From Pseudomonadota bacterium (lineage in GTDB: Bacteria > Pseudomonadota > Gammaproteobacteria > Xanthomonadales > Xanthomonadaceae), in assembly GCA_023388355.1 (NCBI GenBank), contig JAEWGI010000005.1:1-32868 (forward strand): DNA of 32,868 bases. Direction: 5' to 3'. The position numbers and the translations under genes are program-made. Below the pieces are notes generated by a model. That model ran no database searches. It saw only the letters and a list, made by a program, of their open reading frames with translations, and was not told the origin of the DNA. Shown here in pieces: positions 1-17,904 of this stretch (position 1 is its first letter; each line of letters starts with the position of its first letter).

Positions 1-1338
1 TGGGGCTTCGCCGCGACCAACGGCCTCGGTACCGACGCGGTCGCCGCGGCGGCCCGCCAGGCCACGGCCATCGCACGCGCCAATGCCTCCATCCAGGCGC
101 ATCCGGTGCAGCTCGCCCCCGCGCCCGGGCTGGGCGAGCGCAGCTGGCGCACGCCGCTGCGCCGCAACGGCATGGAGGTGCCGGTGCAGGAAAAGCTCGA
201 GCACCTGCTCGAGGTCAACGGCGCGGCCATGGCCGCCGGCGCGGACTTCATCGAATCGAACCTCTTCCTCGTCAACGAACAGAAATACTTCGCCTCCACC
301 GACGGCTCCTGGATCGACCAGGACGTGCATCGCATCTGGGCGCCGTTCACGGTCACCGCGGTCGACAAGGCCAGCGGGAAGTTCCGCACGCGCCAGGGCC
401 TGGGCGCGCCGGTGGGCATTGGCTACGAGTACCTGGACGGCGACGCCTCCGGGAAGGTCCATCTGCCCGGCGGCCTGGTGCAGTACCGCGACTCCTACGA
501 CATGATCGAGGACGCGGTGGCGGCGGCGAGGCAGGCGCGCGAGAAGCTCGTGGCGCCCTCGGTGAAGCCCGGCCGCTACGACCTCGTCCTCGACCCGTCC
601 AACCTCTTCCTCACCATCCACGAGAACGTCGGCCATCCGCTCGAACTCGACCGCGTGCTCGGCTACGAGGCCAACTACGCCGGCACCAGCTTCGCCACCC
701 TCGACAAGCGCGAGTCCGGCTACCGCTGGGGCAGCGAGCGTGTGAACTTCGTGGCCGAGCGCACCACGCCCGGCACCCTCGGCGCGGTCGGCTATGACGA
801 CGAAGGCGTGGAAACGCGGCGCTGGGACCTGGTCCGCGACGGCGTCCTGGTCGACTATCAGACGATCCGCGACCAGGCCCACATCCTCGGCAAGACCTCG
901 TCCAACGGCTGCTGCCATGCCGACTCCTGGTCGAGCGTGCAGTTCCAGCGCATGCCCAACGTCTCGCTGCAGCCGGGCCAGGCGCCGCTGTCGGTCGAGG
1001 AGATGATCGGCGGCGTCGAAGACGGGATCTGGATCCACGGCCGCGGCTCGTATTCCATCGACCAGCAGCGCTACAACGCCCAGTTCGGTGGCCAGCTCTG
1101 CTACGCGATCAAGGACGGGAAGCTGGCCGGCATGGTCGAGGACGTGGCCTACCAGATCCGCACGCCCGAGTTCTGGAACGCCTGCAGCGCGATCTGCGAC
1201 CGGCGCGACTTCCGCCACGGCGGCTCCTTTTTCGACGGCAAGGGACAGCCCTCGCAGGTTTCCGCGGTCTCGCACGGCTCGAGCACGACGCGCTTCGACG
1301 GCATCAACATCATCAACACCGCGCGTAACCTCGGCTGA
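1..1338 (+). CDS. TldD-type metallopeptidase homologue (copy 1, 5' truncated by window)
   Basis: The reading frame is open from base 1, so the protein starts before the window. It is a TldD/PmbA (peptidase U62) family member. The zinc motif HENVGH is at bases 619-636, and a late Cys in FWNACSAICD followed by GKGQPSQ matches the region that supplies the third metal ligand in E. coli TldD (family knowledge). TldD acts with a TldE partner as a protease that trims unfolded or modified peptides such as microcin B17 precursor and CcdA. This copy is closely similar along its whole visible length to the next gene, so the two are a tandem duplication. Its N-terminus, and so whether it also has a Tat signal, cannot be seen. 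A hairpin at 1399-1428 separates it from copy 2. Confidence 0.9.
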   Translation, partial: WGFAATNGLGTDAVAAAARQATAIARANASIQAHPVQLAPAPGLGERSWRTPLRRNGMEVPVQEKLEHLLEVNGAAMAAGADFIESNLFLVNEQKYFASTDGSWIDQDVHRIWAPFTVTAVDKASGKFRTRQGLGAPVGIGYEYLDGDASGKVHLPGGLVQYRDSYDMIEDAVAAARQAREKLVAPSVKPGRYDLVLDPSNLFLTIHENVGHPLELDRVLGYEANYAGTSFATLDKRESGYRWGSERVNFVAERTTPGTLGAVGYDDEGVETRRWDLVRDGVLVDYQTIRDQAHILGKTSSNGCCHADSWSSVQFQRMPNVSLQPGQAPLSVEEMIGGVEDGIWIHGRGSYSIDQQRYNAQFGGQLCYAIKDGKLAGMVEDVAYQIRTPEFWNACSAICDRRDFRHGGSFFDGKGQPSQVSAVSHGSSTTRFDGINIINTARNLG

Positions 1339-1398
1339 GGCCGGGACCCTGCCATTGGTTTATTGACCCCCCGCGAGGGGCATGGCAAGAATCGGGAC

Positions 1399-1428
1399 GG
1401 CCTGCGGGATGCAACGGCACCGCAGGCC
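1399..1428 (+). terminator. Hairpin between the two TldD genes (possible terminator or attenuator)
   Basis: GGCCTGCGG (1399-1407) is perfectly repeated in inverted form as CCGCAGGCC (1420-1428) with a 12-nt loop. It lies between the stop of copy 1 and the proposed start of copy 2. There is no T-run after it, only TT, so it may tune read-through rather than end transcription. A smaller CCCC-GCGA-GGGG hairpin lies just upstream at about 1369-1380. Confidence 0.4.
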
Positions 1429-1461
1429 TTCCAATCCACGCGCACTCACCGGGGAACCGCC

Positions 1462-3096
1462 TTGGACCGACGTGACTTCCTGACCATCAGCGGCATCGGC
1501 CTGGGTGGCCTGATGCTGCCGTCCATGTTCACCCGCGCCATCGCCGCGGAAGAACTCGCCACCAGCATCGACGTCGGCCGCAAGAAGATGCTCGCCGACG
1601 CGGCGCTGGCCGCTGCGCGCGAGTCCGGCGCCAGCTACGCCGACGTCCGCATCGGCCGCTACCTGCGCCAGTTCGTGATCACCCGCGAGGACAAGGTGCA
1701 GAACGTGGTCAACACCGAGTCCACCGGCGTCGGCGTGCGCGTGATCGCGAACGGCGCCTGGGGCTTCGCGGCCACCAACAGCATGACGCCCGACGGCGTG
1801 GCCGGCGCCGCGCGCCAGGCCGCGGCCATCGCCCTGGCCAACGCGAAAACGCAGACCGCACCGGTGCGCTTCGCCGCCGCGCCCGGCCACGGCGAAGTCT
1901 CCTGGCGCACGCCCATCCGCCGCAACGCGATGGAGGTTCCGCTCAAGGAGAAGGTCGACCTGCTGCTGGGCGTCAACGCCGCGGCCACCAATGCCGGCGC
2001 CGACTTCGTCAACTCGATGCTGTTCCTGGTCAACGAGCAGAAGTACTTCGCCTCAACCGACGGCTCCTACATCGACCAGGACGTGCACCGCATCTGGGCG
2101 CCGATGACGGTCACCGCCATCGACAAGTCCAGCGGGAAATTCCGCACGCGCGACGGCCTGTCCTCGCCCATGGGCCTGGGCTACGAATACTTCGACGGCG
2201 ACCCGGCGCAGAAGTTCGTCTCGCCCAACGGCGTGGTGAACTACGGCCACTCCTACGACATGGTCGAGGACGCGGTGGCGGCGGCGAAGCAGGCGCGCGA
2301 GAAGCTCACCGCGCCTTCGGTCAAGCCCGGCCGTTACGACCTGGTGCTCGATCCCTCGCACACCTGGCTGACCATCCATGAATCCGTCGGCCATCCGCTC
2401 GAGCTCGACCGCGTGCTCGGCTACGAGGCCAACTACGCCGGCACCAGCTTCGCCACCCTCGACAAGCGCGAGTCCGGCTTCCGCTACGGCAGCGACGAAG
2501 TGACCATCTTCGCCGACAAGACCCAGCCCGGCAGTCTCGGCGCCGTGGCCTACGACGACGAAGGCGTGGCCTGCAAGCGCTGGGACCTGATCCGCGACGG
2601 CATCCTGGTCGACTACCAGACCATCCGCGACCAGGCCCACATCCTCGGCAAGACCGAGTCCGATGGCTGCTGCTACGCCGACTCCTGGTCGACCGTGCAG
2701 TTCCAGCGCATGCCCAACGTCTCGCTCGCGCCGGGCAAGGCGAAGCTGTCGGTGGACGAGATGATCAAGGACGTCGAGGACGGCATCTACATCGTCGGCG
2801 ACGGCTCGTTCTCGATCGACCAGCAGCGCTACAACGCCCAGTTCGGCGGCCAGCTGTTCTATGAAATCAAGGACGGCGCCATCACCGGCATGATCGAGGA
2901 CGTGGCCTACCAGATCCGCACCCCGGAATTCTGGAACGCCTGCGTGGCCGTCTGCGACGAGTCCGACTACCGCCTGGGCGGTTCGTTCTTCGACGGCAAG
3001 GGCCAGCCCTCGCAGGTCTCGGCGGTCTCGCACGGCTCGAGCACCGCGCGCTTCAACGGCATCAACGTCATCAACACCGCCCGTTCGCTCGGCTGA
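1462..3096 (+). CDS. TldD-type metallopeptidase homologue (copy 2) with twin-arginine signal
   Basis: TldD/PmbA family protein of 544 aa if read from TTG at 1462. That start is chosen because GGGGAA precedes it and because it places a Tat-like signal at the N-terminus: DRRDFLTIS, a hydrophobic stretch GIGLGGLMLPSMF, then a likely cleavage after AIA. The frame stays open to a TTG at 1363, but the added residues look non-coding. HESVGH at residues 306-311 is the metal motif, and a late Cys (FWNACVAVCD, then GKGQPSQ) could be the third ligand. TldD needs a TldE partner, and one starts 18 bp downstream. E. coli TldD is cytoplasmic, so a Tat signal here is unusual and implies a periplasmic or membrane-associated role. 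The signal is read by eye. Confidence 0.9.
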   Translation: MDRRDFLTISGIGLGGLMLPSMFTRAIAAEELATSIDVGRKKMLADAALAAARESGASYADVRIGRYLRQFVITREDKVQNVVNTESTGVGVRVIANGAWGFAATNSMTPDGVAGAARQAAAIALANAKTQTAPVRFAAAPGHGEVSWRTPIRRNAMEVPLKEKVDLLLGVNAAATNAGADFVNSMLFLVNEQKYFASTDGSYIDQDVHRIWAPMTVTAIDKSSGKFRTRDGLSSPMGLGYEYFDGDPAQKFVSPNGVVNYGHSYDMVEDAVAAAKQAREKLTAPSVKPGRYDLVLDPSHTWLTIHESVGHPLELDRVLGYEANYAGTSFATLDKRESGFRYGSDEVTIFADKTQPGSLGAVAYDDEGVACKRWDLIRDGILVDYQTIRDQAHILGKTESDGCCYADSWSTVQFQRMPNVSLAPGKAKLSVDEMIKDVEDGIYIVGDGSFSIDQQRYNAQFGGQLFYEIKDGAITGMIEDVAYQIRTPEFWNACVAVCDESDYRLGGSFFDGKGQPSQVSAVSHGSSTARFNGINVINTARSLG

Positions 3097-3114
3097 CCGG
3101 CACAGGAGAACACC

Positions 3115-4449
3115 ATGAGCATCTTTACCGAAGCCGAAGCCAGGGCCATCCTCGACAAGGTCGTCGCCCTGTCCACGGCCGATGAATGCACCGCAACCCT
3201 GTCCGGCGGCAACAACGGCAACATCCGCTTCGCGCTCAACGACGTGTCCACCAGCGGCATCGTCGACAACGTCGAGCTGGCGGTGTCGGTCGCGTTCGGC
3301 AAGCGCGTGGGCACCGCGACCATCAACGAGTTCGACGACGCCGCGCTCGAGCGCGTGGTGCGGCGCGCCGAGGACCTGGCGCGGCTGGCGCCGGAGAACC
3401 CGGAGTTCATGCCGGCGATCGGCAAGCAGGCCTATACGCCGACCGGCACCCATAGCGCCGCGACCGCGGCGATCACGCCCGCGTACCGCGCCCAGGTGGC
3501 GGCCGATTCCATCGCTCCCTGCCGCGAGGCCGGCCTGGTGGCGGCGGGCTTCCTGGAGGACAGCCGCTCGTTCACCGCGATCGCCAACAGCAACGGCAAC
3601 TTCGGCTACCAGACCTCGACCGGCGCCGACTACACCTGCACCGTGCGCACCGAGGACGGCCGCGGTTCGGGCTGGGTGGGGCGCAACGTCACCGACGTCT
3701 CGAACCTCGACGCGTCGGCCAGCATCGGCGTCGCGATCCGCAAGGCGCGCGAGTCGGCCGACGCCAGGGCGCTGGAGCCGGGCAAGTACACCGTGGTGCT
3801 CGAGCCGCACGCGGCCGCCGGCCTGATCTCGTTCATGATGTACTACTTCGACGCACGCCAGGCCGACGAGGGCCGCAGCTTCCTGTCGAAGAAGGGCGGC
3901 GGCAACAAGCTTGGCGAACAGGTCTACGACCCGCGGGTGAACATCTGGGCCGATCCGGCCGATCCCGACGCGCCGGTGCTGCCCTGGGACGCGGAGGGCA
4001 TGGCCCGCAAGCGCATGCCGGTGATCCAGGACGGCAAGATCGCCAACATGCTGTATTCGCGCTACTGGGCGCAGCAGCAGGGCCGCGAGCCGGTGGCCAC
4101 GCCGGGCAACCTGATCATGTCCGGCGGCACCAAGTCCACCGCCGACCTGGTGCGCGAAACCGAGCGCGGCATCCTGGTCACGCGCACCTGGTACATCCGC
4201 ATGGTCGATCCGCAGACCGTGCTGCTCACCGGCCTGACGCGCGACGGCACGTTCTACATCGAGAACGGGCAGATCCGGCACCCGGTGAAGAACTTCCGCT
4301 TCAACGAATCGCCGGTGATCATGCTCAACAACATCGACGAACTCGGCCGTCCGGTGCGGGTGAGCGGCGATGAATCGCGCTTCGCCATGATGATCCCGCC
4401 GATGCGCCTGCGCGATTTCACCTTCACCTCGCTCTCCGACGCGGTGTGA
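3115..4449 (+). CDS. TldE/PmbA-type partner of the TldD homologues
   Basis: A 444-aa TldD/PmbA family protein without an HExxxH motif, as expected for the non-catalytic TldE (PmbA) half of the heterodimeric protease. The start ATG has a clear AGGAGA site 6-9 bases upstream. The N-terminus (MSIFTEAEARAILDKV) is amphipathic and shows no signal peptide, unlike TldD copy 2 immediately upstream. If the pair works outside the cytoplasm, this subunit would have to be carried through the Tat pore bound to its partner. It could instead serve either of the two upstream TldD copies. The operon position, 18 bp after TldD copy 2, strongly supports pairing. Confidence 0.9.
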   Translation: MSIFTEAEARAILDKVVALSTADECTATLSGGNNGNIRFALNDVSTSGIVDNVELAVSVAFGKRVGTATINEFDDAALERVVRRAEDLARLAPENPEFMPAIGKQAYTPTGTHSAATAAITPAYRAQVAADSIAPCREAGLVAAGFLEDSRSFTAIANSNGNFGYQTSTGADYTCTVRTEDGRGSGWVGRNVTDVSNLDASASIGVAIRKARESADARALEPGKYTVVLEPHAAAGLISFMMYYFDARQADEGRSFLSKKGGGNKLGEQVYDPRVNIWADPADPDAPVLPWDAEGMARKRMPVIQDGKIANMLYSRYWAQQQGREPVATPGNLIMSGGTKSTADLVRETERGILVTRTWYIRMVDPQTVLLTGLTRDGTFYIENGQIRHPVKNFRFNESPVIMLNNIDELGRPVRVSGDESRFAMMIPPMRLRDFTFTSLSDAV

Positions 4450-4472
4450 CCCGGCCTCGCAACCACCGTGCC

Positions 4473-4512
4473 CCCTCCCCCGCGCGCGGGGGAGGGCAGG
4501 GGTGGGGGCAGC
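4473..4512. repeat. REP-like GC-rich palindrome with G-rich tail
   Basis: A perfect 24-nt palindrome at 4473-4496 has 12-base arms beginning CCCTCCCCCGCG. It is followed by a G-rich tail, CAGGGGTGGGGGC. The palindrome-plus-tail design recurs at 5359, 5455 (inverted), 19484 and 19588. It lies in the gap between the TldE and DUF4159 genes. Such elements are common and non-coding in GC-rich gammaproteobacteria. The stem could also act on the transcript. Confidence 0.75.
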
Positions 4513-4603
4513 CACCGGCCTGGAGCAGATCGTCGGATCCTCCGCGCCCGTCCCGCCGCCCGTGCACCTCCGTGGGGCTTTCGCCCACATGAGCGGTGCA
4601 CGC

Positions 4604-5317
4604 ATGAACCGGGCGCAGTTCCTGCGCCTGGGCCTCGGTGCTGCCGCCGGCGCGTGGTTGGCAACGAAGTCTCTTGACGCGCATGCCGCCGGCGCGGCCA
4701 GCTACGACTTCTGGTTCACCCGCCTCAAGTACGACTCCGGCAACTGGGACGTCGACGAGCGCATGCCGTCGAACCTGATCACTTCGCTGATCGACTACAC
4801 CGGGCTGCGCGTGGACCCGGAGGAGCACGTGGTCGAGCTGGCCGACCCGAAGATGCTGTCGGCCCCGTTCTGCTACCTGGCCGGGCACAAGCTGGTCGAG
4901 TTCAACCCGGCCGAGCGGCGCAACTTCGAGCGCTACGTGCGCAACGGCGGCTTCGTGCTCGTGGACGACTGCAACCACGACATCGACGGCCTGTTCGCGA
5001 AATCGTTCGAGGCGCAGATGGCCGCGATCTTCGGCCCGCGCGCGCTCGGGAAGCTGCCCGACAGCCATCCGCTCTACAGCAGCTTCTTCCGCTTTCCCGA
5101 CGGCCCGCCGACCACCAGCTTCGAGCTCAACGGCTGGGGCGACGACCTGGTTCACGACTACCTCAAGGGCATCAGCATCGACGGCCGGCTCGGCGTGCTC
5201 TACAGCAACAAGGACTACGGCTGCGAATGGGACTACGACTGGCGCAACAAGCGCTTCCTGGCCGAGGACAACACGAAGTTCGCGGTCAACATCGTGGTCT
5301 ACGCGCTGACCGCATGA
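4604..5317 (+). CDS. DUF4159 domain protein with Tat-like signal sequence
   Basis: About 237 aa from ATG 4604; ATG 4589, five codons upstream, is equally possible and neither has a strong ribosome site. The N-terminus [20 protein letters not shown] resembles a Tat leader in which the second Arg of the pair is lost, followed by AHA as a possible cleavage site. The mature part ([19 protein letters not shown], then [10 protein letters not shown] and [16 protein letters not shown]) is typical of DUF4159. This family has a flavodoxin/amidotransferase-like fold, has no established function, and is commonly found beside MoxR/DUF58 genes. Here it sits between the TldD/E genes and moxR, suggesting it belongs to the same envelope-associated machine. 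Confidence 0.85.
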
Positions 5318-5355
5318 GCAGTCCGCCGTCCCGCCGCAGCAGCGATCCCGCCTCT

Positions 5356-5482
5356 GCTCCCTCCCCTTCAAGGGGAGGGCCGGGGCGGGGATGGTGTCGC
5401 AGGCGCATGCGCCACACCCAGCCGCATCATTCCAGTCACACCATCCCCACCCAACCCTCCCCTTGAAGGGGAGGGCTTCGGC
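5356..5482. repeat. Pair of REP-like palindromes in inverted orientation (BIME-like)
   Basis: Two near-identical palindromes lie in the DUF4159-moxR gap. The first (5359-5379) has arms CCCTCCCCTT/AAGGGGAGGG around one base and a GGGGATGGTGT tail. The second (5455-5475) has the same arms around one base but is inverted, with the complementary ACACCATCCCC before it. Between them is GGCGCATGCGCC (5402-5413), a perfect 12-nt palindrome. The whole unit can fold as one long cruciform or RNA hairpin. Because moxR starts 18 bp downstream, the structure would be in its leader if the cluster is one transcript. Confidence 0.8.
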
Positions 5483-5499
5483 ACCCAACGGATCTTCCA

Positions 5500-6498
<999 letters not shown>

Positions 6499-6512
6499 GC
6501 GTCGCGACCACC

Positions 6513-7409
6513 GTGGGCTGGGATCCCGTCACTCCGGGTCTGCGCGCGCAGCTGCGCGCGCTGCGCATCGCCTCGCGCCGCGGCAGCCCGCTGCGCGGCG
6601 GCGGCGAGCACCGCAGCCGCGACAGGGGCGCGGGACTGGAGTTCTCGCAGTACCGCGGCTACGAGCCCGGAGACGAGCTGCGCCGCATCGACTGGAAGCT
6701 GTACGCGCGCAGCGACCGCTACTTCGTGCGCGAGGCCGAGCGCGACAGCCCGCTGGCCGTGTGGATCATGCTCGATGCCAGCGCGTCCATGGCGCAGGCC
6801 GACGAAACCCGGCCCGACTGGTCGCGGCTGGATGCGGCCAGGGCGCTGGCGGCCTGCATCGCCGAGGTCGCGCTGCGGCAGGGCGATCGCGCCGGGATGG
6901 TGGCGCTGCGCGATGACGCGATCGCGTTCGCGCCCGCCGCCGCCGGCAGTCGCCAGCGCGAACGGCTGCTGTTCGAACTCGACCGCGTGCAGGCCGGCGG
7001 CGGCGTGCCCGACGAAGCGCGGCTGCGCCCGCTCTGGGAGCGCATCGCGCCCGACGACCTGGTGGTGGTGCTGGGCGACCTGCTCGATCCCGCGGTGCCC
7101 GACCTTGCGGTCCGCCTGGCTGCCGCGCGCCGCGAGGTGCTGGCGATCCAGCTGCTGACCGTGGCCGAGCGGGATTTCCCGTTCGACGACGGGCGCCGCT
7201 TCATCGATCCGGAAACCGGTGAAGCGCTGCCGGGCGACGCACGCGCGCTGCGCGCCGGCTTCCTCGCGCGTTTCGGCGAGGCGCAGCAGCGCCTGCACGC
7301 GCGGCTTGCCGAAGCCGGCATCCGTCGCGCCGTACACGTGCTCGACGAGCCGCTGCTGCAGCCGCTGCGGCAGCTGTTCGCGGCCGGCCCGGGAAGCGCG
7401 GAGGCATGA
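6513..7409 (+). CDS. DUF58 domain protein (vWA-like MoxR partner)
   Basis: 298 aa from GTG 6513, 14 bp after the moxR stop; this is the first plausible start after that stop, and the upstream open frame only shadows moxR. It contains the DUF58 signature: LEFSQYRGYEPGDELRRIDW (residues 42-61), then ARSDRYFVREAE, then the MIDAS-like LDASASM with D88, S90 and S92. DUF58 proteins are cytosolic or peripheral partners of MoxR ATPases. The last four bases overlap the next start (ATGA), indicating translational coupling. Confidence 0.93.
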   Translation: MGWDPVTPGLRAQLRALRIASRRGSPLRGGGEHRSRDRGAGLEFSQYRGYEPGDELRRIDWKLYARSDRYFVREAERDSPLAVWIMLDASASMAQADETRPDWSRLDAARALAACIAEVALRQGDRAGMVALRDDAIAFAPAAAGSRQRERLLFELDRVQAGGGVPDEARLRPLWERIAPDDLVVVLGDLLDPAVPDLAVRLAAARREVLAIQLLTVAERDFPFDDGRRFIDPETGEALPGDARALRAGFLARFGEAQQRLHARLAEAGIRRAVHVLDEPLLQPLRQLFAAGPGSAEA

Positions 7410-8557
7410 ACCCGGTGCTGCTGCTGCCGGCGGGACTGGCCGCGCTCGCCGCGCTGGCGCTACCGCTGCTGATCCACCTGGCGCGGCGCCAGCAGCAGCG
7501 GCCGACCGTGTTCGCCGCCCTGCGCTGGCTGCGCGCCCGGCCGAAGCCGCGGCGCCGCATCCGCTTCGACGAACGCTGGCTGCTGGCCCTGCGCCTGCTG
7601 CTGCTGGCGCTGCTGGCGGTGCTGCTCGCCCGGCCGGCGCTGCTGGACGTGGTGGACGCGCGCCCGCGCGTGCTGGTGGTGCCGGGCGTGGACGCTTCGG
7701 CGGTCGCCGACCTGCGTTCGGATCGGGAGCTGGATGCGCGCTGGCTGGCACCGGGCTTTCCCCCGCTGGATGAAGCGGCACCCGCAGGCGGTACCGCGAC
7801 CGCCAGCCTGCTGCGCGAGTTCGATGCCGCGCTTGCACCCGCCGCATCGCTCGCCGTGCTGGTTCCCGAACGCATGATCGGCGCCGACGCCGCACGCCTG
7901 CAGCTCTCGCGCAGCGTGGACTGGCGGAGCGTGGCTGGCGGCGCCTGGCCGGAGCCGGCGGTCGACGCGGCGCCTGCGATCGCGATCCGCCACGACGACG
8001 CGCATCGCGGCGGCGCGCGTCATCTGCAGGCCGCGGCGCTTGCCTGGCAGGACGGGGAAGGGGCGCAGGTCGACGTGGCGGAGTCGGCGGACCTGCCGGC
8101 GAAGGATGGCGCGGCGCTGGCCTGGCTGCATCCCGGCGCGCTGCCGCACGAAGTGTTGCGCCGCGTGGAGCAGGGCGGGACCGCGCTGCTGCCGGCCGAT
8201 GCGCGGCTGCCCGACGGCGTCGAGCCGACCGTGGCGTGGCGCGACGACGGGGGCGAGCCGCTGCTGCACGTCGCGCGCCTCGGAAAGGGCAGGGTGCTGC
8301 AGCTGACGCGCGCGCTGACGCCCGCTGCGATGCCGCAACTGCTCGATCCCTCCTTCCCGCATGCGCTGCGCGACCGGCTGCTGCCCGCGCCCGCGCCGAC
8401 CGCAGTCGCGGCGAGCGACTACGCGCCGCATGCGGGCGCCGCCGCGACGGTGCCGTCGCCGCTGGACCTGCGGCCCTGGCTTGCGCTCGCGATCGCGCTG
8501 CTGTTCCTGCTCGAACGCTGGCTGGCGACCTCGCGCCGGCGCGGAGCGGCGGCATGA
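7406..8557 (+). CDS. BatA-like membrane protein (BatA N-terminal domain)
   Basis: 383 aa. The N-terminus has the BatA_N arrangement: a transmembrane helix at about residues 4-25, a basic loop (LARRQQQRPTVFAALRWL ... RPKPRRRIRF), then a second helix at about 58-78. A final helix lies near the C-terminus (LRPWLALAIALLFLLERWLA). The domain after helix 2 should be vWA-like, but where a full MIDAS (DxSxS) is expected it reads VPGVDASAVAD, so metal-dependent adhesion is probably lost. Most of the protein would face the periplasm. It overlaps both neighbours by ATGA, making a tight unit with DUF58 and the next membrane protein. Confidence 0.85.
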   Translation: MNPVLLLPAGLAALAALALPLLIHLARRQQQRPTVFAALRWLRARPKPRRRIRFDERWLLALRLLLLALLAVLLARPALLDVVDARPRVLVVPGVDASAVADLRSDRELDARWLAPGFPPLDEAAPAGGTATASLLREFDAALAPAASLAVLVPERMIGADAARLQLSRSVDWRSVAGGAWPEPAVDAAPAIAIRHDDAHRGGARHLQAAALAWQDGEGAQVDVAESADLPAKDGAALAWLHPGALPHEVLRRVEQGGTALLPADARLPDGVEPTVAWRDDGGEPLLHVARLGKGRVLQLTRALTPAAMPQLLDPSFPHALRDRLLPAPAPTAVAASDYAPHAGAAATVPSPLDLRPWLALAIALLFLLERWLATSRRRGAAA

Positions 8558-10743
8558 GCGCCGTCGCCGCGCTCGACCGCGCATTGCATCGCGTGCGTCG
8601 CCGGGCCGCGCTCGATGCGCTGCTCGCCTGGCTGCCCCTGCCGCTGGCGCTGGCCGCATCGCTGTGGCGCCCGGCGGGCCCGGTGCCGGCGCTGGCGGTG
8701 GCCGCGCTGGCGCTGCTGGCGGTGGGTATCGCGGCGGCGTACCGGCTGCGCCGCTTCGACCGTCGATGGCTGGCGCTGCGCCTGGACGCCGCGCGCCGCG
8801 ACCTCGACGACAGCAGCGCCCTGCTGTTCGCCGAAGCGGCCGCGCTCTCGCCGCTGCAGCGTCTCCAGCGCGAGCGCCTCGAACAGCGCCTGCGCGAACG
8901 CGCCGCGCCGGACCTGCGTCCGCCGTGGTCGATGCGCGCGATCGCATTGGCCTGGCTTGCGCTCATTGCCGTGTGCCTGGCCGCGGCGCTCTGGCCGGCG
9001 CCGCGCGCCGTGCCCGGCGCCGCGCCGGCGCCCGCGCGCGATGCGCCCGTGGCGTCCGAACCGCGGCTGCTCGAGCAGTCGCTGCAGGTGCGGCCGCCCG
9101 CCTACACCGGTCTGGACGCCACGTCCACGTCCTCGCTCCACGCCGAGGCGCCGGTCGACAGCACGCTGCAGTGGACGCTGCGCTACGCGCCGCAGCCCGC
9201 CGCGGTCGAACTGGTGTTCCACGACGGCAAACGCCTTGCGCTGCGGCGCGAAGGCGACGCCTGGACCGCCCGCCACGTGCTGCGCGCGTCCACCCTGTAC
9301 CGCGTCGTGCCCGACGGCGTGGCCGGTGCGGACACATCGCCGCTGCATCGCCTCGACGCGATCGCCGACCAGCCGCCGCGCGTGCGGGTGATTGCGCCCG
9401 AACGCGGACTGACGCTGATGACGCGGGGGCAGCGCGACTGGACGCTGCAGTTCGAAGCCGGCGACGACCACGGGGTGTCCGCGCGCGCGCGTCTGCTGGT
9501 GACGCGCACCGAGGGCACCGGCGAGAACATCCGCTTCCAGGACCACGTGCGCGTGCTGCAGGGCCGCGGCGATGCGCGCACGAAGCGCTTCGCGGTGAGC
9601 CTGAAGCCGGCCGACTTCGGCCTGCAGCGCGGCGAGGACCTGGTCGCGCGCCTGGAGGTCAGCGACAACCGTGCGCCGCAGCCGCAGCTCGCGCGCAGCG
9701 CCAGCGTGATCCTGCGCTGGCCGCCCGAGCCGGTGCTGGGCGCCGAAGGCCTCGACGGGCTGGCGCGCCAGGTGCTGCCGGCGTACTTCCGCAGCCAGCG
9801 CCAGGTCATCATCGACGCCGAGGCGCTGCTGCAGGAGCGGCCGCGCCTGCGGGCGGACGAGTTCGAACGGCGCTCCGACCTGCTCGGCGTCGACCAGCGC
9901 CTGCTGCGCCTGCGCTACGGCCAGTTCCTCGGCGAGGAAAGCGAAGGCGGACGCCCGCTGCCGACCAGCGACCTGCCCACCAGCGACCTGCCGGTCGACG
10001 ATGGCCACGACGATGACGCCCACGACCACGCCGACGATCCGGCACGGGCGCCCGGAGACGATCACGACCACGGCGACCCCGGCGCCGGACAGCCAGCCGG
10101 CTTCGGCAAGGTCGACGACGTGCTCGAGGCGTTCGGCCACACCCACGACATCGCCGAGGCCGCGACCCTGCTCGATCCGCAAACCCGGGAAACCCTGCGT
10201 GGCGCACTGCGCGAGATGTGGCAGTCGGAGCTGCACCTGCGCCAGGCCAGGCCCCACGAAGCCCTGCCGTACGCGTATCGCGCGCTGGAGCTGATCAAGC
10301 AGGTGCAGCAGGCCGAGCGCATCTACCTGCCGCGGGTCGGCACCCGGCTGCCGCCGATCGACCAGTCGCGGCGGCTGGGCGGCGATCGCGAAGGCCTGCG
10401 CAATCGTCCGCTGCCGCCGCTGGTCGCGGCCACCGGGGAAGACGCGCTCACCGCGGCCTGGCGATCGCTGGAAGACGTGCGAGCGGACACGCTGCCGGCC
10501 ACGCTCGACGCGCTGCAGGCCTGGGCTGAAGCGAATCGCGATCGCCTCGACGACCCGCTGGCCTGGATCGCCGCGATCGACGCGCTGCGCCAGAATCCCG
10601 GCTGCGACGAATGCCGCGCGAGCCTGCGCGGCCTGCTGTGGAGTGCGATGCCGCGTCCGTCGGGCGGATTCGCACCGCGCGTGGACGATGCCGCCGCGCG
10701 CCGCTATCTCGATGCGCTGCACGACGCGGAGGACGCGCCATGA
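8554..10743 (+). CDS. Large DUF4175-like membrane protein with His/Asp-rich segment
   Basis: 729 aa from ATG 8554 (ATGA overlap with the upstream gene). There are hydrophobic segments at about residues 24-38, 46-62 and 131-148, then a long soluble part containing an Ig-like stretch (LQVRPPAYTGLDATSTSS) and a later helical part (LREMWQSELHLRQARPHEALPYAYRALELIKQVQQAERIYLPRVG in pieces). The layout resembles the DUF4175-type proteins found in MoxR clusters; the family assignment is from memory of the pattern, so moderate. Residues of about 469-512 form a low-complexity acidic and His-rich loop (two LPTSD repeats, then DDGHDDDAHDHADD and DDHDHGD), which looks able to bind divalent metal. Likely function: a structural periplasmic component of the cluster. 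Confidence 0.7.
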   Translation: MSAVAALDRALHRVRRRAALDALLAWLPLPLALAASLWRPAGPVPALAVAALALLAVGIAAAYRLRRFDRRWLALRLDAARRDLDDSSALLFAEAAALSPLQRLQRERLEQRLRERAAPDLRPPWSMRAIALAWLALIAVCLAAALWPAPRAVPGAAPAPARDAPVASEPRLLEQSLQVRPPAYTGLDATSTSSLHAEAPVDSTLQWTLRYAPQPAAVELVFHDGKRLALRREGDAWTARHVLRASTLYRVVPDGVAGADTSPLHRLDAIADQPPRVRVIAPERGLTLMTRGQRDWTLQFEAGDDHGVSARARLLVTRTEGTGENIRFQDHVRVLQGRGDARTKRFAVSLKPADFGLQRGEDLVARLEVSDNRAPQPQLARSASVILRWPPEPVLGAEGLDGLARQVLPAYFRSQRQVIIDAEALLQERPRLRADEFERRSDLLGVDQRLLRLRYGQFLGEESEGGRPLPTSDLPTSDLPVDDGHDDDAHDHADDPARAPGDDHDHGDPGAGQPAGFGKVDDVLEAFGHTHDIAEAATLLDPQTRETLRGALREMWQSELHLRQARPHEALPYAYRALELIKQVQQAERIYLPRVGTRLPPIDQSRRLGGDREGLRNRPLPPLVAATGEDALTAAWRSLEDVRADTLPATLDALQAWAEANRDRLDDPLAWIAAIDALRQNPGCDECRASLRGLLWSAMPRPSGGFAPRVDDAAARRYLDALHDAEDAP

Positions 10744-12584
10744 GCCTCCAGCACTGGGTGGCGCTGGTGCTGGCGCTGGCCGCGGCGCTGGGCTGCCTGC
10801 GGCAGTGGCGGGCGCACCGGCGCGACCCGCGCCGGCCACGTGCCTGGCGCCTGCTGGTGCTGCTGGCGCTGCAGCCGATCCTGGCGGCCGCACTGTATCC
10901 GGTGCTGTTCCCGCCGCAGCGCGCGGTCGATCCGGACACGCTGGTGCTGCTCACCGAGGGCGCCAGCGCCGCCGACGCAGCGACTGCGGACGGCGTCGCG
11001 CTGGCGCTGCCGGAAGCGCGCGACGCGGGCACCGTGGCGCGCACGCCCGACCTCGCCACCGCCCTGCGCCGGCATCCCGGCACGACCCGCGTGCAGGTGC
11101 TGGGCGCGGGCCTGGTTGCGCGCGATCGCGATGCCGCGCGCGGGCTTGCGGTCGCGTTCGAGCCGCCGCCGCTGCCGTCCGGTATCGTGCGCCTCGCGCT
11201 GCCGTCGCGGGTGATTCGCGGGCTGGCCTTCGCAATCGATGGACAGGCCGAAGGCGCACCCGGAGGCAGCGTCGAACTGCGCGACCCGGCCGGCCGCCGC
11301 GTGGACGCGGCCGCGCTGGACGACGACGGACGCTTCCGCGTGCACGGCCCGGCGATGGAAACCGGCACCGCCCGGTTCGAGCTGCGCCTGCTGGACGCGG
11401 ATGGCGCAACGCTGGCGCAATCCGACGTGCCGCTGGGGATCGAACCGCCTGCGTCGCCGCGGGTGCTGCTGCTGGCCGGCGCGCCCGGCCCGGAAACGCG
11501 CGCACTGCGGCGCTGGCTGGTCGATGCCGGCGCGCAGGTGCAGGCGCGCATCGCGCTGGGCGGCGGCCTGCAACTGGGCGCCGCGCCGCTCGGCGAGGCG
11601 GCGCTGGCCGAGGCCGACCTGGTGATCGCCGACGCGCGTGCCTGGTCCGGCCTGGGCGAAGGGGGCCGCGACCGCGTGCTGGCCGCGGTACGCGAAGGCA
11701 TGGGCCTGCTGCTGCGCGCCGACACGCCGCTGTCCGCCGCCTCGCTGCGCGGCGTGGCCGCAAGCGGCTTCGCCATCGACGGCGGCGCGGGCAGCGCGGC
11801 ATGGCCGCTGCCGTTCGCGGACATGGAGGACGAGCAGGCGCTGCGCGCATGGCTGGGCAGCGGCAGCGCCGATGCACCGTTCGATCCGGAGTCGCAGGCG
11901 CCGCTGCCGCCGCTGTCGCGTCGCAGCTGGCGGGTGCGCGGTGCGCAGGCGATCGCGTTCGCGCCCGCGTCCGATGGCGGGGTGCCGACGGGCTGGTGGC
12001 GCAGCGAGGGCCGCGGCCGGATCGGCCTGTGGACCCTGCTCGACAGCTATGTGCTGCGGCTGCACGGCCGCGCGGACCTGCACGACAGGCTCTGGAGTCG
12101 CGCGGTCGGCACCCTGGCGCGGGCGCGGGCCGATGCGCTGCCGGTCGTGGAAGTCGACGCGCGCATCGGCGAGCGCATGACGGTGTGCGGCTGGCCCGAG
12201 GGCGCCGTGGTCGAAGCGCCGGACGGCGGCATGTTTCGGCCGCTGGCCGATCCGGCCACCGGCAGCCGCCGCTGCGCCGGAATCTGGCCGCAGGTCGCGG
12301 GCTGGCATCGGCTGCGGGTGGCGGACGCGGATGCGGAGCGCCGGTTCCACGTTGCCGCCGCCGATTCCGACCCGCCACGGCGCCTGGCCGCGCTGCGCGA
12401 CGCCACGCTCGCGATGGCCGGTTCCGCGCCGCGAACGCAGCGGGCCGCGGATGCGGTTGCGACCGTCGCCGGCCCTGCGTGGCCATGGCTGCTGCTCTGG
12501 CTGCTGCCGGCCGCGCTTGCATGGTGGCTGGAACGCTCCCGCCTGGGCCTGGCCAGCCGCGACGATTCCTTCCGGCACCCGTAG
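10740..12584 (+). CDS. Membrane protein with amidotransferase-like middle domain, last gene of the MoxR cluster
   Basis: 614 aa from ATG 10740 (ATGA overlap). Helices are predicted by eye at about residues 5-23 and 37-57 and near the C-terminus (WPWLLLWLLPAALAWWLE). The middle has a beta-sandwich-like stretch (VELRDPAGRRVDAAALDDDG) and a Rossmann-like stretch, RVLLLAGAPGPETRALRRWL, followed by LVIADARAW and GMGLLLRADTP. This resembles the class I amidotransferase-like fold seen in proteins at the end of BatA/MoxR clusters, but I see no catalytic Cys-His-Glu triad. Probably a non-enzymatic periplasmic/membrane component. It ends the tight cluster; a 261-bp gap follows. Confidence 0.75.
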   Translation: MSLQHWVALVLALAAALGCLRQWRAHRRDPRRPRAWRLLVLLALQPILAAALYPVLFPPQRAVDPDTLVLLTEGASAADAATADGVALALPEARDAGTVARTPDLATALRRHPGTTRVQVLGAGLVARDRDAARGLAVAFEPPPLPSGIVRLALPSRVIRGLAFAIDGQAEGAPGGSVELRDPAGRRVDAAALDDDGRFRVHGPAMETGTARFELRLLDADGATLAQSDVPLGIEPPASPRVLLLAGAPGPETRALRRWLVDAGAQVQARIALGGGLQLGAAPLGEAALAEADLVIADARAWSGLGEGGRDRVLAAVREGMGLLLRADTPLSAASLRGVAASGFAIDGGAGSAAWPLPFADMEDEQALRAWLGSGSADAPFDPESQAPLPPLSRRSWRVRGAQAIAFAPASDGGVPTGWWRSEGRGRIGLWTLLDSYVLRLHGRADLHDRLWSRAVGTLARARADALPVVEVDARIGERMTVCGWPEGAVVEAPDGGMFRPLADPATGSRRCAGIWPQVAGWHRLRVADADAERRFHVAAADSDPPRRLAALRDATLAMAGSAPRTQRAADAVATVAGPAWPWLLLWLLPAALAWWLERSRLGLASRDDSFRHP

Positions 12585-12666: not shown

Positions 12667-12784
12667 GACGATTGGATCCGGTCGCGATCGTCGCGTCCGT
12701 CGCGAACCCGCAGCCTGCCCGCGTGCGCCCGTGCGGCTGCGACCGGTGCGTGTCGTCGGCGGCGGCGATCGCGGTTGAAGCGCG

Positions 12785-12815
12785 TTTACACACGGCGGTC
12801 GGGTGCGAGTATTCT
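12785..12815 (+). promoter_or_regulatory. Candidate sigma70 promoter for the GFA-family gene
   Basis: TTTACA (12785-12790) and TATTCT (12810-12815) are separated by 19 bp, in an otherwise GC-rich gap. The start codon is 30 bp after the -10, with ACGGAG as the ribosome site between them. Confidence 0.5.
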
Positions 12816-12845
12816 CGACACCGGTTCCGACACGGAGTTCGTGCC

Positions 12846-13196
12846 ATGGCGAGGTACCAGGGCAGCTGCCACTGCGGGAGGATCGCGTTCGAGGTGGAGG
12901 GCGAGGTGTCCTCGGTCATCGACTGCAACTGTTCGATGTGCCGGCGGCGCGGCGGGCTGCTGGCCGCGTTCCCGCGCTCGGCGCTGACGCTCACGACGCC
13001 GCAGGAAAACCTGTCCACCTATCGATTCAACCGCGAGGCGATCGGGCATCACTTCTGCGCGAACTGCGGGATCGCCACCTTCAGCGAAGGCAAGGGCCGC
13101 GACGGCGCGGTCATGGCCATGGTCAACGTGCGCTGCCTGCCCGATGTGGACCTCGCGGCGCTGGAGGTGACGGATGTCGACGGCGCCAGCTTCTGA
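12846..13196 (+). CDS. GFA-family (CENP-V/GFA) zinc protein
   Basis: 116 aa from ATG 12846, preceded by ACGGAG. The open frame extends upstream to 12672 but that part is non-coding in style. Cysteines C8, C10, C27, C29, C32, C71 and C74, in the patterns CHCG, CNCSMC and CANCG, are the zinc-binding set of the glutathione-dependent formaldehyde-activating enzyme fold. Members include S-hydroxymethylglutathione synthase, but most small paralogues have no proven substrate, so a formaldehyde role should not be assumed. The 3' end overlaps the next gene by 23 bp. Confidence 0.9.
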   Translation: MARYQGSCHCGRIAFEVEGEVSSVIDCNCSMCRRRGGLLAAFPRSALTLTTPQENLSTYRFNREAIGHHFCANCGIATFSEGKGRDGAVMAMVNVRCLPDVDLAALEVTDVDGASF

Positions 13197-14088
13197 TCCG
13201 CACCACGCCGGCGGCATGACGGCAAGGCCCGCGGCGCGGCGTCGCCTGGACTGCGCTGCGGTTTCGCTGCGGAACCTGCGGTTGAGCCTTGCAGCGGTGC
13301 TGTCGCTGCTGCTTGCCGCCTGCAGCGATCCGGATATGTCCGAGCGCGGCCAGGCGGCGATGGGCGCAGCTGCCCCGGCGACAATGCCGGCGGAGGCCGC
13401 GGCCGATGGCGGCGACGATGCCGCGGACGCCTCGTTCCTTGCCTACGAGCACACTGCGTCGATCACGCTGCCGGCGGACGCCATCGGCGCGCGCATGCAG
13501 GAGGCGCAGCAGGCCTGCACGTCGGCGCGATTCGGCGCCTGCGTGGTGCTGAACGTGCGCCAGCAGGGCGGCGACTGGCCCTCGGGCACGCTCGGCATGC
13601 GGATCGCGCCGCAGGGCGTGGAGCCGATGATCGCACTGGCCAGCGCCGGCGCCGACCTCGGCAGCCGCAGTACCCACGCCGAGGATCTCGCGGTGCTGGT
13701 GCGCGACAACGACCTCGCCCGCGAGCGCCTGGCCAAGGAGCGCGAGCGGCTGCAGGAGTTCGCCGCGCGCCGCGACCTGGCGGTGGCCGACATGATCGCG
13801 CTCTCGCGCCAGCTGGCCGACACCGAGGCGCAGATGGAGCGGGCCGAGCGCGAGGCGGCGCAGCATCGCCGGCGGATCGAAACCCAGCTGCTGACCCTGG
13901 AGTTCAGGCCGACGTCGACCCAGGCCAACCGCAACGAGATCTGGCTGGCGATCCGCGATTCGGGGCAGACGCTTGCCGGCGGCGTGGCCTGGACGATCCG
14001 CGCGCTCGCGTTCTCCCTGCCGCTGCTGGTGCTGGTCGCCGTCGTGCTCGCCTGGCGCCGGCGCTCTCGCCGCCGCAGGCAGGGCTGA
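13174..14088 (+). CDS. DUF4349 domain lipoprotein
   Basis: 304 aa. ATG 13174 is chosen because GGAGGTGA lies 4-11 bases before it, although this makes a 23-bp overlap with the previous gene; ATG 13216 is an alternative. The lipobox LLLAAC places the lipidated Cys at residue 50, a long leader that favours the second start on protein grounds. The mature part has the DUF4349 layout: a beta-rich stretch with two cysteines (AQQACTSARFGACVVLNV), then GSRSTHAEDLAVLVRDN, a coiled coil of about 70 residues (LAKERERLQEF ... AQMERAEREAAQHRRR), a conserved strand QLLTLEF, and one C-terminal helix (AFSLPLLVLVAVVLAW) with a basic tail. The function of the family is unknown; the protein is anchored in the envelope at both ends. 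Confidence 0.87.
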   Translation: MSTAPASDPHHAGGMTARPAARRRLDCAAVSLRNLRLSLAAVLSLLLAACSDPDMSERGQAAMGAAAPATMPAEAAADGGDDAADASFLAYEHTASITLPADAIGARMQEAQQACTSARFGACVVLNVRQQGGDWPSGTLGMRIAPQGVEPMIALASAGADLGSRSTHAEDLAVLVRDNDLARERLAKERERLQEFAARRDLAVADMIALSRQLADTEAQMERAEREAAQHRRRIETQLLTLEFRPTSTQANRNEIWLAIRDSGQTLAGGVAWTIRALAFSLPLLVLVAVVLAWRRRSRRRRQG

Positions 14089-14091
14089 GGC

Positions 14092-14136
14092 CGCGGCACC
14101 TTGCCGCGCCGTCCGCCTCGCCGGGTTTGAACCCGG
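14092..14136 (+). terminator. Two hairpins after the DUF4349 gene
   Basis: CGCGGCA/TGCCGCG (14092-14098 and 14102-14108, 3-base loop) starts 3 bases after the stop codon, and CCGGGT-TTGA-ACCCGG (14121-14136) follows. There is no T-run, so termination is only suggested. The second stem could instead be an operator for the aldo/keto reductase gene that starts at 14188. Confidence 0.4.
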
Positions 14137-14187
14137 TCCGGGAGTGTCGCAGACTCGGGATCCCGTCGATCCTCCGGAAGGGCCAGC

Positions 14188-15141
14188 ATGACCACGCGCC
14201 GTGATTGCCTGAAGTTTTCGCTCGCCGCGGCGATTGCCGCTGCGGTCCCGCACGGACGCGCGTTCGGCGCCGGCGAAGCGCCGCTGCTGACGCGTGCGGT
14301 GCCCAGGAGCGGCGAGCAGCTGCCGGTGGTGGGGCTGGGCAGTTCGGCGACGTTCGCCCAGGTGGCGCGCGGCGAGGATGTCTCGGCCCTGCGCGAGGTG
14401 CTGCGGACTCTGATCGCGGGCGGCGGCCGGGTGTTCGATACCGCGCCGTCCTACGGCGCGTCCGAGGAGGTGGCCGGCACGCTCGCGCGCGAGCTGGGGA
14501 TCGGCGAGAAGGTGTTCTGGGCCACCAAGCTCAACGCGGTGCCGCGTGGCGGCGACAGCGCCGATCCGGCCGCGGCGCGCGAGCAGCTCGAGACCTCCTT
14601 CCGTCGCTTGGGCAAGGATCCGCTCGACCTGGTGCAGGTGCACAACCTGGCCGACATCCCGACCCAGCTCGCCCTGCTGCAGCGCTACAAGGCAGACGGA
14701 CGCATCCGCCACGTCGGCGTGACCTCGACCAGCAAGCAGGCCTATCCGCGCCTGGTCGAGGTGATGCGCAACGAGGAGATCGACTTCATCGGCGTCGACT
14801 ACGCGATCGACAACCGCGACGTGGAGGAGGTCATCCTGCCGCTGGCGCTCGAGCGCAGGATCGGCGTGCTGGTGTACCTGCCGTTCGGCCGCACCCGGCT
14901 GTGGAGCCGGATCGGCGAGCGCCCGCTGCCGGAGTGGGCGGCGGAGTTCAACGTCGGCTCGTGGGCGCAGTTCATGCTCAAGTTCGTGATCGCGCATCCG
15001 GCGGTGACCTGCGTCACCCCGGCGACCAGCAAGCCGCACCACATGGTCGACAACCTCGGCGCCGGCCTCGGCCTGCTGCCCGACGAGGCGCAGCGCAGGC
15101 GCATGGTCGAGTTGATCGAGGCATTGCCCGCGGCGGAATGA
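14188..15141 (+). CDS. Aldo/keto reductase with twin-arginine signal
   Basis: 317 aa. The leader MTTRRDCLKFSLAAAIAAAV has the RRxCLKF Tat pattern and a likely cleavage near AFGA. The catalytic tetrad of the aldo/keto reductase barrel is visible: D84 and Y89 in FDTAPSYG, K114 in WATKLN and H152 in VQVHN. Such enzymes reduce carbonyls with NADPH. Export through Tat, folded with cofactor bound, is consistent with the signal. The physiological substrate is unknown. The start ATG has GGAAGGG upstream. It converges with the small gene on the minus strand. Confidence 0.92.
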   Translation: MTTRRDCLKFSLAAAIAAAVPHGRAFGAGEAPLLTRAVPRSGEQLPVVGLGSSATFAQVARGEDVSALREVLRTLIAGGGRVFDTAPSYGASEEVAGTLARELGIGEKVFWATKLNAVPRGGDSADPAAAREQLETSFRRLGKDPLDLVQVHNLADIPTQLALLQRYKADGRIRHVGVTSTSKQAYPRLVEVMRNEEIDFIGVDYAIDNRDVEEVILPLALERRIGVLVYLPFGRTRLWSRIGERPLPEWAAEFNVGSWAQFMLKFVIAHPAVTCVTPATSKPHHMVDNLGAGLGLLPDEAQRRRMVELIEALPAAE

Positions 15142-15159
15142 GGCCCGGATCGGCGCGGC

Positions 15160-15456: not shown

Positions 15457-15539
15457 CGGATCCTCGACTGCGTGTGGGGCAGATGCAGGCTAGGCCGGCG
15501 TCGGCAAACGCGGCGTGAGGACCGGGGCGACGACGACGT

Positions 15540-16466
<927 letters not shown>

Positions 16467-16539
16467 GGCGGGGTTCCGGGACGGGATCGATCCCGATTGT
16501 GGCCCGTTCGCGGCCCCGCACGACTAATGGCACATCCAC

Positions 16540-16545: not shown

Positions 16546-16560
16546 GAACTCCGCAATAGC

Positions 16561-17867: not shown

Positions 17868-17904
17868 TGCGGGCCGGCGCCCGCGGCTCGAGCCACGGTG
17901 CGCG

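What the first reader, a model, noticed from the sequence alone, without database searches (positions are those of the whole stretch)
1..12584. TldD-TldD-TldE-DUF4159-MoxR-DUF58-BatA-DUF4175-like-amidotransferase-like cluster as one envelope system
Nine consecutive same-strand genes join a heterodimeric peptidase pair to a MoxR AAA+ machine with its vWA-type partner and three membrane proteins. MoxR/DUF58 and TldD/TldE are each known, but a joint role is not established to my knowledge. Several members are exported or membrane-bound, so a plausible model is MoxR-driven assembly of an envelope complex that handles or matures peptides. The MoxR-to-end part is tightly coupled by ATGA overlaps.
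Basis: partly seen in the sequence, partly recalled or inferred. Interest (0 to 1): 0.72.

Follow-up and report, generated by a model that had tools for sequence, protein, structure and literature searches.

The report
Exported TldD/E peptidase with MoxR machine
Some proteobacteria carry a second copy of a known peptide-cutting enzyme that looks built to work outside the inner membrane, and its genes sit beside those of an energy-driven membrane machine, which suggests one envelope system whose job is still unknown.

Summary
The nine genes are there, on one strand and in order; the window cuts TldD1 at its 5' end. Strand and order hold in the 89 loci annotated (window plus 88; 79 complete, 10 partial).

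The link reaches beyond close relatives but belongs to one subtype. In 299 Pseudomonadota genomes, the cluster's TldE and its DUF4159 type occur in the same 9, in one cluster each. The 63 genomes with the long, BatA-fused DUF4159 type show no TldD near it. Three more genomes found by TldE alone carry the cluster.

New here: these TldDs look exported. All 168 with a readable start have a twin-arginine motif, and 171 of 171 have Asp where 25 of 25 relatives without the motif keep the metal-ligand Cys. TldE shows no signal. Best reading: folded TldD/TldE leaves through Tat, TldE as passenger, and works in the periplasm beside the MoxR-DUF58-BatA complex. Co-location is strong; export, coupling, substrate and the role of ATP are inferred.

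The operon was noted as uncharacterised in Stenotrophomonas (PMC7688217). 'Amidotransferase-like' has weak support, 'DUF4175-like' none.

The parts
1..1338 (+). TldD1, metallopeptidase subunit, 5' end outside the window; HENVGH at 619-636, FFDGKGQ at 1228-1248
   Evidence: PF19289 7.6e-27; motifs located; falls in a 20-row Lysobacteraceae TldD1 group, support 100/99
1462..3096 (+). TldD2, Tat-type start LDRRDFLTISG (probable TTG start 1462); HESVGH at 2377-2394, FFDGKGQ at 2986-3006
   Evidence: PF19289/PF01523/PF19290; start and motifs
3115..4449 (+). TldE (PmbA), no signal peptide seen, no HExxxH
   Evidence: Pfam; ATG preceded by AGGAG; no TM-like stretch
4604..5317 (+). DUF4159 protein with a Tat-like N-terminus MNRAQFLRL (one arginine missing); DDCNHDID and CEWDYD motifs
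   Evidence: PF13709 4.3e-54; motifs; model resembles 4i66, then ThuA-like folds
5359..5475 (.). 31-nt inverted repeat (87% complementary) in the DUF4159-MoxR gap, REP/MITE-like; probably not part of the system
5500..6498 (+). MoxR AAA+ ATPase, GVPGLGKT (Walker A) and LLADEL (Walker B) present
   Evidence: PF07726 5.2e-63; motifs
6495..7409 (+). DUF58 (vWA-like, DASAS motif), no TM-like stretch; start CTG 6495 or GTG 6513
   Evidence: PF01882 9.3e-35
7406..8557 (+). BatA-type membrane protein: two N-terminal TM helices, probably a third at the C-terminus (by eye); no vWA family hit
   Evidence: PF07584, TIGR02226; TM scan
8554..10743 (+). g8, three N-terminal TM-like stretches, then a large, probably periplasmic part with a His/Asp-rich loop at about 9997-10090
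   Evidence: no Pfam family; side of the membrane is inferred
10740..12584 (+). g9, two N-terminal TM-like stretches, probable Ig-like and GATase/GIFT-like domains, probable C-terminal TM helix (by eye)
   Evidence: no confident Pfam family; AF2 model pLDDT 76.8, pTM 0.56; weak Foldseek match to OST48

Best explanation
This is one envelope system built around an export-adapted TldD/E metallopeptidase. One or two TldD paralogues (HExxxH plus a probable Asp third ligand) pair with a catalytically empty TldE in the cytoplasm. The folded pair leaves through the Tat translocon on TldD's signal, TldE travelling as a signal-less passenger. In the periplasm the hollow peptidase trims unfolded peptides or protein N-termini. 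It works beside a membrane complex of BatA, g8, g9 and DUF4159, which the cytosolic MoxR-DUF58 pair assembles or remodels with ATP. Shown by sequence: gene content and order, co-occurrence, Tat motifs, the Cys-to-Asp change, absence of a visible TldE signal. Inferred: actual export, the passenger step, the physical link to MoxR, the substrate. MoxR most likely acts as maturation or export-assembly chaperone; this step is the least certain.
For: Strand and order conserved in 89 of 89 loci, 79 of them complete. Cluster-type TldE (>700 bits) in 9 of 299 genomes, the same 9 that hold the short DUF4159 type, within one cluster in each. Three further genomes found by TldE alone carry the cluster. 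Tat motif in 168 of 168 TldDs with readable starts (147 also pass a stricter script and the other 21 show the motif in the printed sequence) and in 236 of 240 listed database relatives, the other 4 having shorter N-termini. FDGKGQ in 171 of 171 cluster TldDs and 240 of 240 relatives. All 25 TldDs read that lack the motif keep Cys: 18 housekeeping and 7 others. TldE: 0 of 89 HExxxH; 88 of 93 starts have a Shine-Dalgarno-like site directly before the mature sequence. E. coli TldD/E is active only as a pair, with metal held by two His and Cys454 (PMC5810440, summary and passages). Three separate TldD duplications in a 53-row tree stayed in the cluster. TatC in 9 of 9 cluster genomes. Precedent: MoxR1 is reported to interact with the peptidase RipA and mediate its Tat transport (PMC12067865 passage).
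Against: A MoxR-DUF58-DUF4159 core lives without TldD/E nearby in 63 of the 72 DUF4159-bearing genomes (MoxR and DUF58 seen in all 11 such loci read), so the core has a function of its own. DUF4159 has RR in only 33 of 91, RA in 49, other residues in 6, and no signal at all in 3, so its location is unsure. Cluster TldDs keep other cysteines (119 of 168 a WNxCxxxC pair, 97 of 168 a C-C/ADS motif), which weakens a redox rationale for losing the Cys ligand. Hydropathy of the first 45 residues of TldE (up to 1.41) overlaps the low end of the TldD signals (from 1.17). A plain alignment with E. coli TldD puts Phe, not Asp, at Cys454. MoxR of the cluster was not resolved as one clade. g9 was not recognised in one of the three test genomes. 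No interaction, transcript or localisation data were generated. TldE could stay in the cytoplasm.
Confidence: 0.6

Rival explanations
1. Only TldD is exported. TldE stays in the cytoplasm, and the periplasmic peptidase is a TldD homodimer or a TldD1-TldD2 pair.
For: No signal seen on TldE in the loci read; two TldDs per locus are common (60 D-D-E and 10 D-E-D of 89); PMC5810440 mentions a reported active archaeal TldD homodimer.
Against: Nine loci with at least 3.9 kb of upstream sequence have a single TldD with TldE, and L198 a tenth. TldE follows TldD by a median of 21 nt in 90 pairs. The E. [quoted passage not shown]
Confidence: 0.15
2. Two independent modules share a regulator: a Cmd-like envelope-integrity machine (MoxR to g9) and an exported peptidase, co-located but not physically coupled.
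For: The core exists without TldD/E nearby. Gaps in the 5' half are larger and variable (medians 105 nt TldE-DUF4159, 39 nt DUF4159-MoxR), whereas MoxR to g9 is near-overlapping.
Against: One-to-one co-occurrence in 299 genomes. DUF4159, which follows BatA in one protein in the Rhizobium locus, is a separate gene between the tld genes and MoxR in the 79 complete loci.
Confidence: 0.2
3. MoxR-DUF58 is a metal insertase for TldD, as NorQD is for nitric oxide reductase; the His/Asp-rich loop of g8 buffers the metal.
For: MoxR-vWA pairs are described as serving target remodelling and metal insertion (PMC13036017, start of abstract in the listing; PMC12657314 passage). g8 has 4-13 His in its richest 40 residues in 82 profile hits (split genes count twice), against means of 0.9-3.1 and maxima up to 6 in other cluster proteins.
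Against: E. coli TldD/E apoenzyme regains activity on adding metal (passage). The core also exists without TldD nearby. g8's loop would lie in the periplasm, while Tat cargo is normally metallated in the cytoplasm (recalled).
Confidence: 0.12
4. A RiPP-type maturation cluster in which TldD/E removes a leader peptide and the membrane proteins export the product.
For: TldD/E matures microcin B17 in E. coli (PMC5810440).
Against: No RiPP modification family among the nine genes. The same nine-gene content recurs across Lysobacteraceae genera, unlike a strain-specific product cluster. A precursor peptide was not searched for.
Confidence: 0.03

Closest known systems
E. coli TldD/TldE (PmbA) metalloprotease (PDB 5nj5 and relatives)
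   Same: Same domains; HExxxH in TldD, none in TldE; sequence match to 5nj5 over most of the protein
   Different: Tat-type start on TldD, Asp instead of Cys as probable third ligand, one or two TldDs per TldE, linked to MoxR; E. coli tldD and tldE lie apart, with no MoxR in the 14 and 10 kb fetched around them
cmdA-D operon of Rhizobium leguminosarum (RL3499-RL3502), known here through passages of other papers; the primary paper was not held
   Same: A Rhizobium locus (L143) has MoxR, DUF58, a BatA-type membrane protein with DUF4159, and a GATase1_like protein
   Different: DUF4159 fused to BatA; no TldD/E and no g8 found in L143; g9 versus its 689-aa protein not significant by profile. Equating L143 with RL3499-RL3502 is inference from gene content
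S. maltophilia operon NIPOLPBK_01784-01792 (PMC7688217, passage read)
   Same: Uncharacterised operon with two TldDs, a MoxR-like ATPase, a putative protease, a membrane protein and hypotheticals; some of its genes down in biofilm in all isolates. S. maltophilia loci here have the cluster
   Different: Identity rests on gene content and species; the paper's sequence was not compared. The passages read do not mention export or a ligand change
MoxR1-RipA of mycobacteria (PMC12067865 passage)
   Same: A MoxR ATPase gene near an envelope peptidase that it is reported to help through Tat
   Different: RipA is an NlpC/P60 peptidase, not a TldD; the primary paper was not held
NorQ-NorD and other MoxR-vWA pairs
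   Same: MoxR with a vWA-type partner
   Different: Different targets; metal insertion was not tested here

Membership tests
TldD/E (PmbA/TldD) metallopeptidase | Three PmbA/TldD domains in TldD and TldE | tested here: met
   all three in TldD2 and TldE; TldD1 domain 1 lies outside the window
TldD/E (PmbA/TldD) metallopeptidase | HExxxH in TldD only | tested here: met
   164 of 164 TldD, 0 of 89 TldE
TldD/E (PmbA/TldD) metallopeptidase | Cys third metal ligand (E. coli Cys454) | tested here: not met
   Asp by comparison with close relatives; Phe in a plain alignment with E. coli; no Cys either way. PMC5810440 says Asp can substitute in some members, so this marks a variant, not exclusion
TldD/E (PmbA/TldD) metallopeptidase | Heterodimeric peptidase activity | not testable with these tools
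   needs protein
Tat substrate (TldD) | RRxF-type motif followed by a hydrophobic stretch at the N-terminus | tested here: met
   168 of 168; no dedicated signal predictor was available
Tat substrate (TldD) | TatC in the host | tested here: met
   9 of 9 cluster genomes; the window's own genome is not held
Tat substrate (TldD) | Export depends on Tat | not testable with these tools
   needs an export assay
Tat substrate (DUF4159) | Twin arginine | tested here: inconclusive
   RR in 33 of 91 (28 by pattern, 5 by eye), RA in 49, others 6, no signal in 3
MoxR-vWA pair | MoxR AAA+ with Walker motifs beside a vWA-type protein | tested here: met
Bat operon (Bacteroides aerotolerance) | vWA-bearing BatA/BatB, BatD, TPR protein | tested here: not met
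   window BatA matches only PF07584; no BatD or TPR family among the nine genes; only the DUF58 protein has a weak vWA hit below its cut-off
Cmd-type operon (R. leguminosarum) | MoxR, DUF58, BatA-DUF4159, GATase-type protein in this order | tested here: inconclusive
   MoxR, DUF58 and BatA in order; DUF4159 separate and before MoxR; g9 not significant
DUF4175 (g8) | Pfam DUF4175 match | tested here: not met
   no such hit for the window protein at E<=10, nor for three relatives

The most novel reading that the evidence does not exclude
An ATP-coupled periplasmic proteolysis machine: a self-compartmentalised TldD/E peptidase, adapted to the periplasm by a Tat signal and a Cys-to-Asp ligand switch and carried out as a hitchhiking pair, is docked on an inner-membrane complex through which cytosolic MoxR-DUF58 transmits ATP-driven motion to load or gate it.
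Probability: 0.25. Interest if true: 0.82.

Novelty: new variant of a known kind. Interest (0 to 1): 0.6.

Why it matters
It points to a whole TldD/E group moved to the periplasm, with a metal-ligand change that tracks the export motif, and gives an uncharacterised, biofilm-regulated operon a testable mechanism. It also gives the MoxR-DUF58-DUF4159 core, known mainly from envelope phenotypes, a defined enzyme partner in one branch, so that MoxR's target there can be sought directly.

Tried and rejected
Link of g9 to the Rhizobium 689-aa GATase1_like protein: aligned over the expected region, but probability 0.3%, E 0.21. g9 Foldseek hits are low in TM-score (best TMq 0.23 among the 50 shown).

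First view that a standalone DUF4159 always means TldD: rejected. In the window's class, six genomes hold 13 standalone DUF4159 genes of another type, and none of the 13 loci shows TldD or TldE (several are short contigs, and the profiles found no DUF4159 in 2 of the 13, L173 and L178). A lone TldD/E pair in G189 looked like an exception, but it lacks the Tat motif and keeps Cys.

RiPP cluster: no supporting family. Viral contigs: no relative of DUF4159. Plasmids: two distant DUF4159 records. L051 (Asticcacaulis MAG, 76% identity) may be misbinned; it is counted among the 80 loci but not used as evidence of spread. MoxR tree (34 rows): cluster sequences not resolved as one clade (2 changes; one change in 23% of bootstrap trees), so a single origin is not shown. 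Promoter and terminator scan: one weak promoter-like site and nothing above expectation that helped. A first stricter Tat count used a wrong distance limit and passed only 46 of 168; the corrected one passed 147, and the 21 others show the motif in the printed sequence.
Full report
Observation. The nine genes are real. Pfam names the first seven: two TldDs, TldE, DUF4159, MoxR, DUF58 and a BatA-type membrane protein. The last two, called g8 and g9 here, match nothing at E<=1e-3 and only weak, unrelated families at E<=10. TldD1 runs off the left edge. GC is 71.7%, and the nearest named relatives are Luteimonas. No whole genome is held for the window. DUF58/BatA, BatA/g8 and g8/g9 overlap as ATGA; MoxR/DUF58 does not.

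Conservation of the locus. A scan of genome contigs found 515 relatives of TldE and kept the best 80. The hits above 60 bits in each locus lie on one strand. Complete orders: 60 D-D-E, 10 D-E-D, 9 D-E, each followed by DUF4159-MoxR-DUF58-BatA-g8-g9; 10 are partial. Two of the 9 D-E loci (L025, L066) are cut by the contig end, so a second TldD may be missing there. BatA, g8 and g9 diverge fast (often 40-50% identity to the window outside the closest Luteimonas), yet the order holds.

Specificity of the association. Of 299 Pseudomonadota genomes, 72 have DUF4159: 9 in short frames (up to 300 aa) and 63 in long ones (578-1222 aa). The BatA fusion in the long type was checked by Pfam in one Rhizobium locus. 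All 9 short ones lie in a cluster with TldD/TldE; 8 were fetched as 20-kb loci and read, and G001 was checked by coordinates and its named locus L003. Of the 63, 13 genomes have no TldD hit and 50 have one elsewhere. I compared the coordinates by eye: the closest pair on one contig is about 55 kb apart (G085); pairs on different contigs cannot be measured. Eleven of the 63 were read directly and none shows TldD. In the reverse direction, a profile of cluster-type TldE finds 11 of 299 genomes at E<=1e-20, of which 9 exceed 700 bits, the same 9; the next is 368 bits (G189), which lacks the Tat motif and keeps Cys, and one is 83 bits (G132, not examined). In a sample of 369 genomes of the window's class, 11 match DUF4159: 4 already known cluster genomes, 6 with a different standalone type, and 1 below the cut-off. 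None of the 13 loci of those 6 shows TldD or TldE. Of the 6, 4 have TldD elsewhere and 2 have no hit.

A test outside the sample. TldE alone, searched in 99 genomes of the order of G269, gave 5 at E<=1e-20 and 4 above 700 bits. The three not seen before were read: all have TldD, TldE, DUF4159, MoxR, DUF58, BatA-like hits and g8; two also have g9. In the third (L198) a 513-aa frame lies where g9 should be, but the profile does not recognise it. In 60 genomes of the order of G296, only G296 itself exceeds 700 bits, so the cluster is sparse there. The TldD of G269 has its nearest named relatives in Paraglaciecola, Alteromonas, Colwellia, Thalassotalea and, further down the list, Aliikangiella (lineages); the neighbourhoods of those named proteins were not seen. 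So the association spans at least Lysobacteraceae, an Alteromonadales-type lineage and Oxalobacteraceae.

Export-type TldD. All 162 TldDs with readable starts in the first set and 168 of 168 in the wider one have a twin-arginine motif followed by a hydrophobic stretch; 147 pass a stricter script and the other 21 show it in the printed sequence. Among the 240 listed database relatives of two divergent members, 236 have it within 45 residues; the 4 others have shorter N-termini. HExxxH is in 164 of 164 and FDGKGQ in 171 of 171 cluster TldDs and 240 of 240 relatives. E. coli TldD holds its metal with two His and Cys454 (PMC5810440, summary and passages). A plain alignment with E. coli puts Phe at Cys454, one residue before the Asp. 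Closer relatives align without gaps: TFTCGKAEPVQVAPVSHG (G189) and AFNCGKGQPGQVAPVSHG (Nonomuraea) against SFFDGKGQPSQVSAVSHG. All 25 TldDs read without the motif have Cys: 18 housekeeping ones, 8 of them from cluster genomes, E. coli, G189, three plasmid-borne (the Deinococcus start checked), G387 and G503. PMC5810440 already notes that Asp may substitute in some TldDs, for example Gemmatimonas; the link to the export motif is what I add. Literature searches showed no title, abstract start or opened passage reporting Tat-exported TldD; one search listed 25 of 74 papers, and most listed papers were not opened. A 53-row tree separates the 51 cluster TldDs from the two Cys-type relatives (100/100; drawn with a midpoint root, and the two outer branches are very long), with separate duplications in Lysobacteraceae, G124 and Massilia.

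TldE and DUF4159. TldE starts at once with its mature sequence. Of 93 starts, 88 have a Shine-Dalgarno-like site. The most hydrophobic 15 residues in its first 45 average 0.89 (up to 1.41), against 1.70 (from 1.17) for TldD signals, so the ranges overlap at the edge. Four RR matches near TldE lie upstream of the start in the examples printed. E. coli proteolytic activity needs both TldD and TldE, so co-export as a folded pair is the simplest reading; Tat hitchhiking is recalled from other systems. DUF4159 is unclear: RR in 33 of 91 (28 by pattern, 5 by eye), RA in 49, other residues in 6, and no signal in 3. Its model (pLDDT 72.6) matches 4i66 best, then ThuA-like folds; that 4i66 is a DUF4159 protein is recalled.

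Membrane parts. A simple scan gives BatA, g8 and g9 two, three and two N-terminal TM-like stretches. g8 carries a His/Asp-rich stretch (4-13 His per 40 residues in 82 hits). g9 models as Ig-like and GATase/GIFT-like parts with weak matches.

Function. PMC7688217 (passage) describes what is probably this operon in S. maltophilia as not yet characterised; some of its genes are down in biofilm in all isolates. The R. leguminosarum operon that I equate with the core is linked to envelope and cell-shape defects (passages in PMC5700661). MoxR1 is reported to help the peptidase RipA through Tat (passage). From these I favour MoxR-DUF58 as maturation or assembly chaperone of an exported TldD/E complex. 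This last step is inference. Other phyla were not surveyed.

Noticed in passing
window 5359-5475: Inverted repeat with palindromic CCCTCCCCTT(C/G)AAGGGGAGGG units in the DUF4159-MoxR gap; a related G-rich block lies in the TldE-DUF4159 gap at 4489-4507. Looks like a REP/MITE-type insertion.
   Followed up: partly
window about 9997-10090: His/Asp-rich loop in g8, present in various lengths in relatives; possible metal-binding stretch.
   Followed up: partly
L123, L197, L198: DUF4159 in these lineages starts with the mature sequence and shows no signal, so it may be cytosolic or a second passenger.
   Followed up: partly
L122 (G124): This genome has only the three cluster TldD/TldE hits and no housekeeping pair by PF19289.
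   Followed up: no
L166-L178: A third DUF4159 type (up to three copies per genome) in six genomes of the window's class, in three loci near MoxR-DUF58-BatA, with no TldD found beside it.
   Followed up: partly
L141, L138: Cys-type TldD/TldE pairs lie beside ABC transporter genes (dipeptide type annotated in Burkholderia; a solute-binding-like protein by eye in G189).
   Followed up: no
window 12672-32473: Downstream genes: GFA, DUF4349, aldo/keto reductase, PadR with HAAS/Sensor protein, PhoD phosphatase, dicarboxylate symporter, DUF418, DAO oxidoreductase, and several long frames without Pfam match.
   Followed up: no
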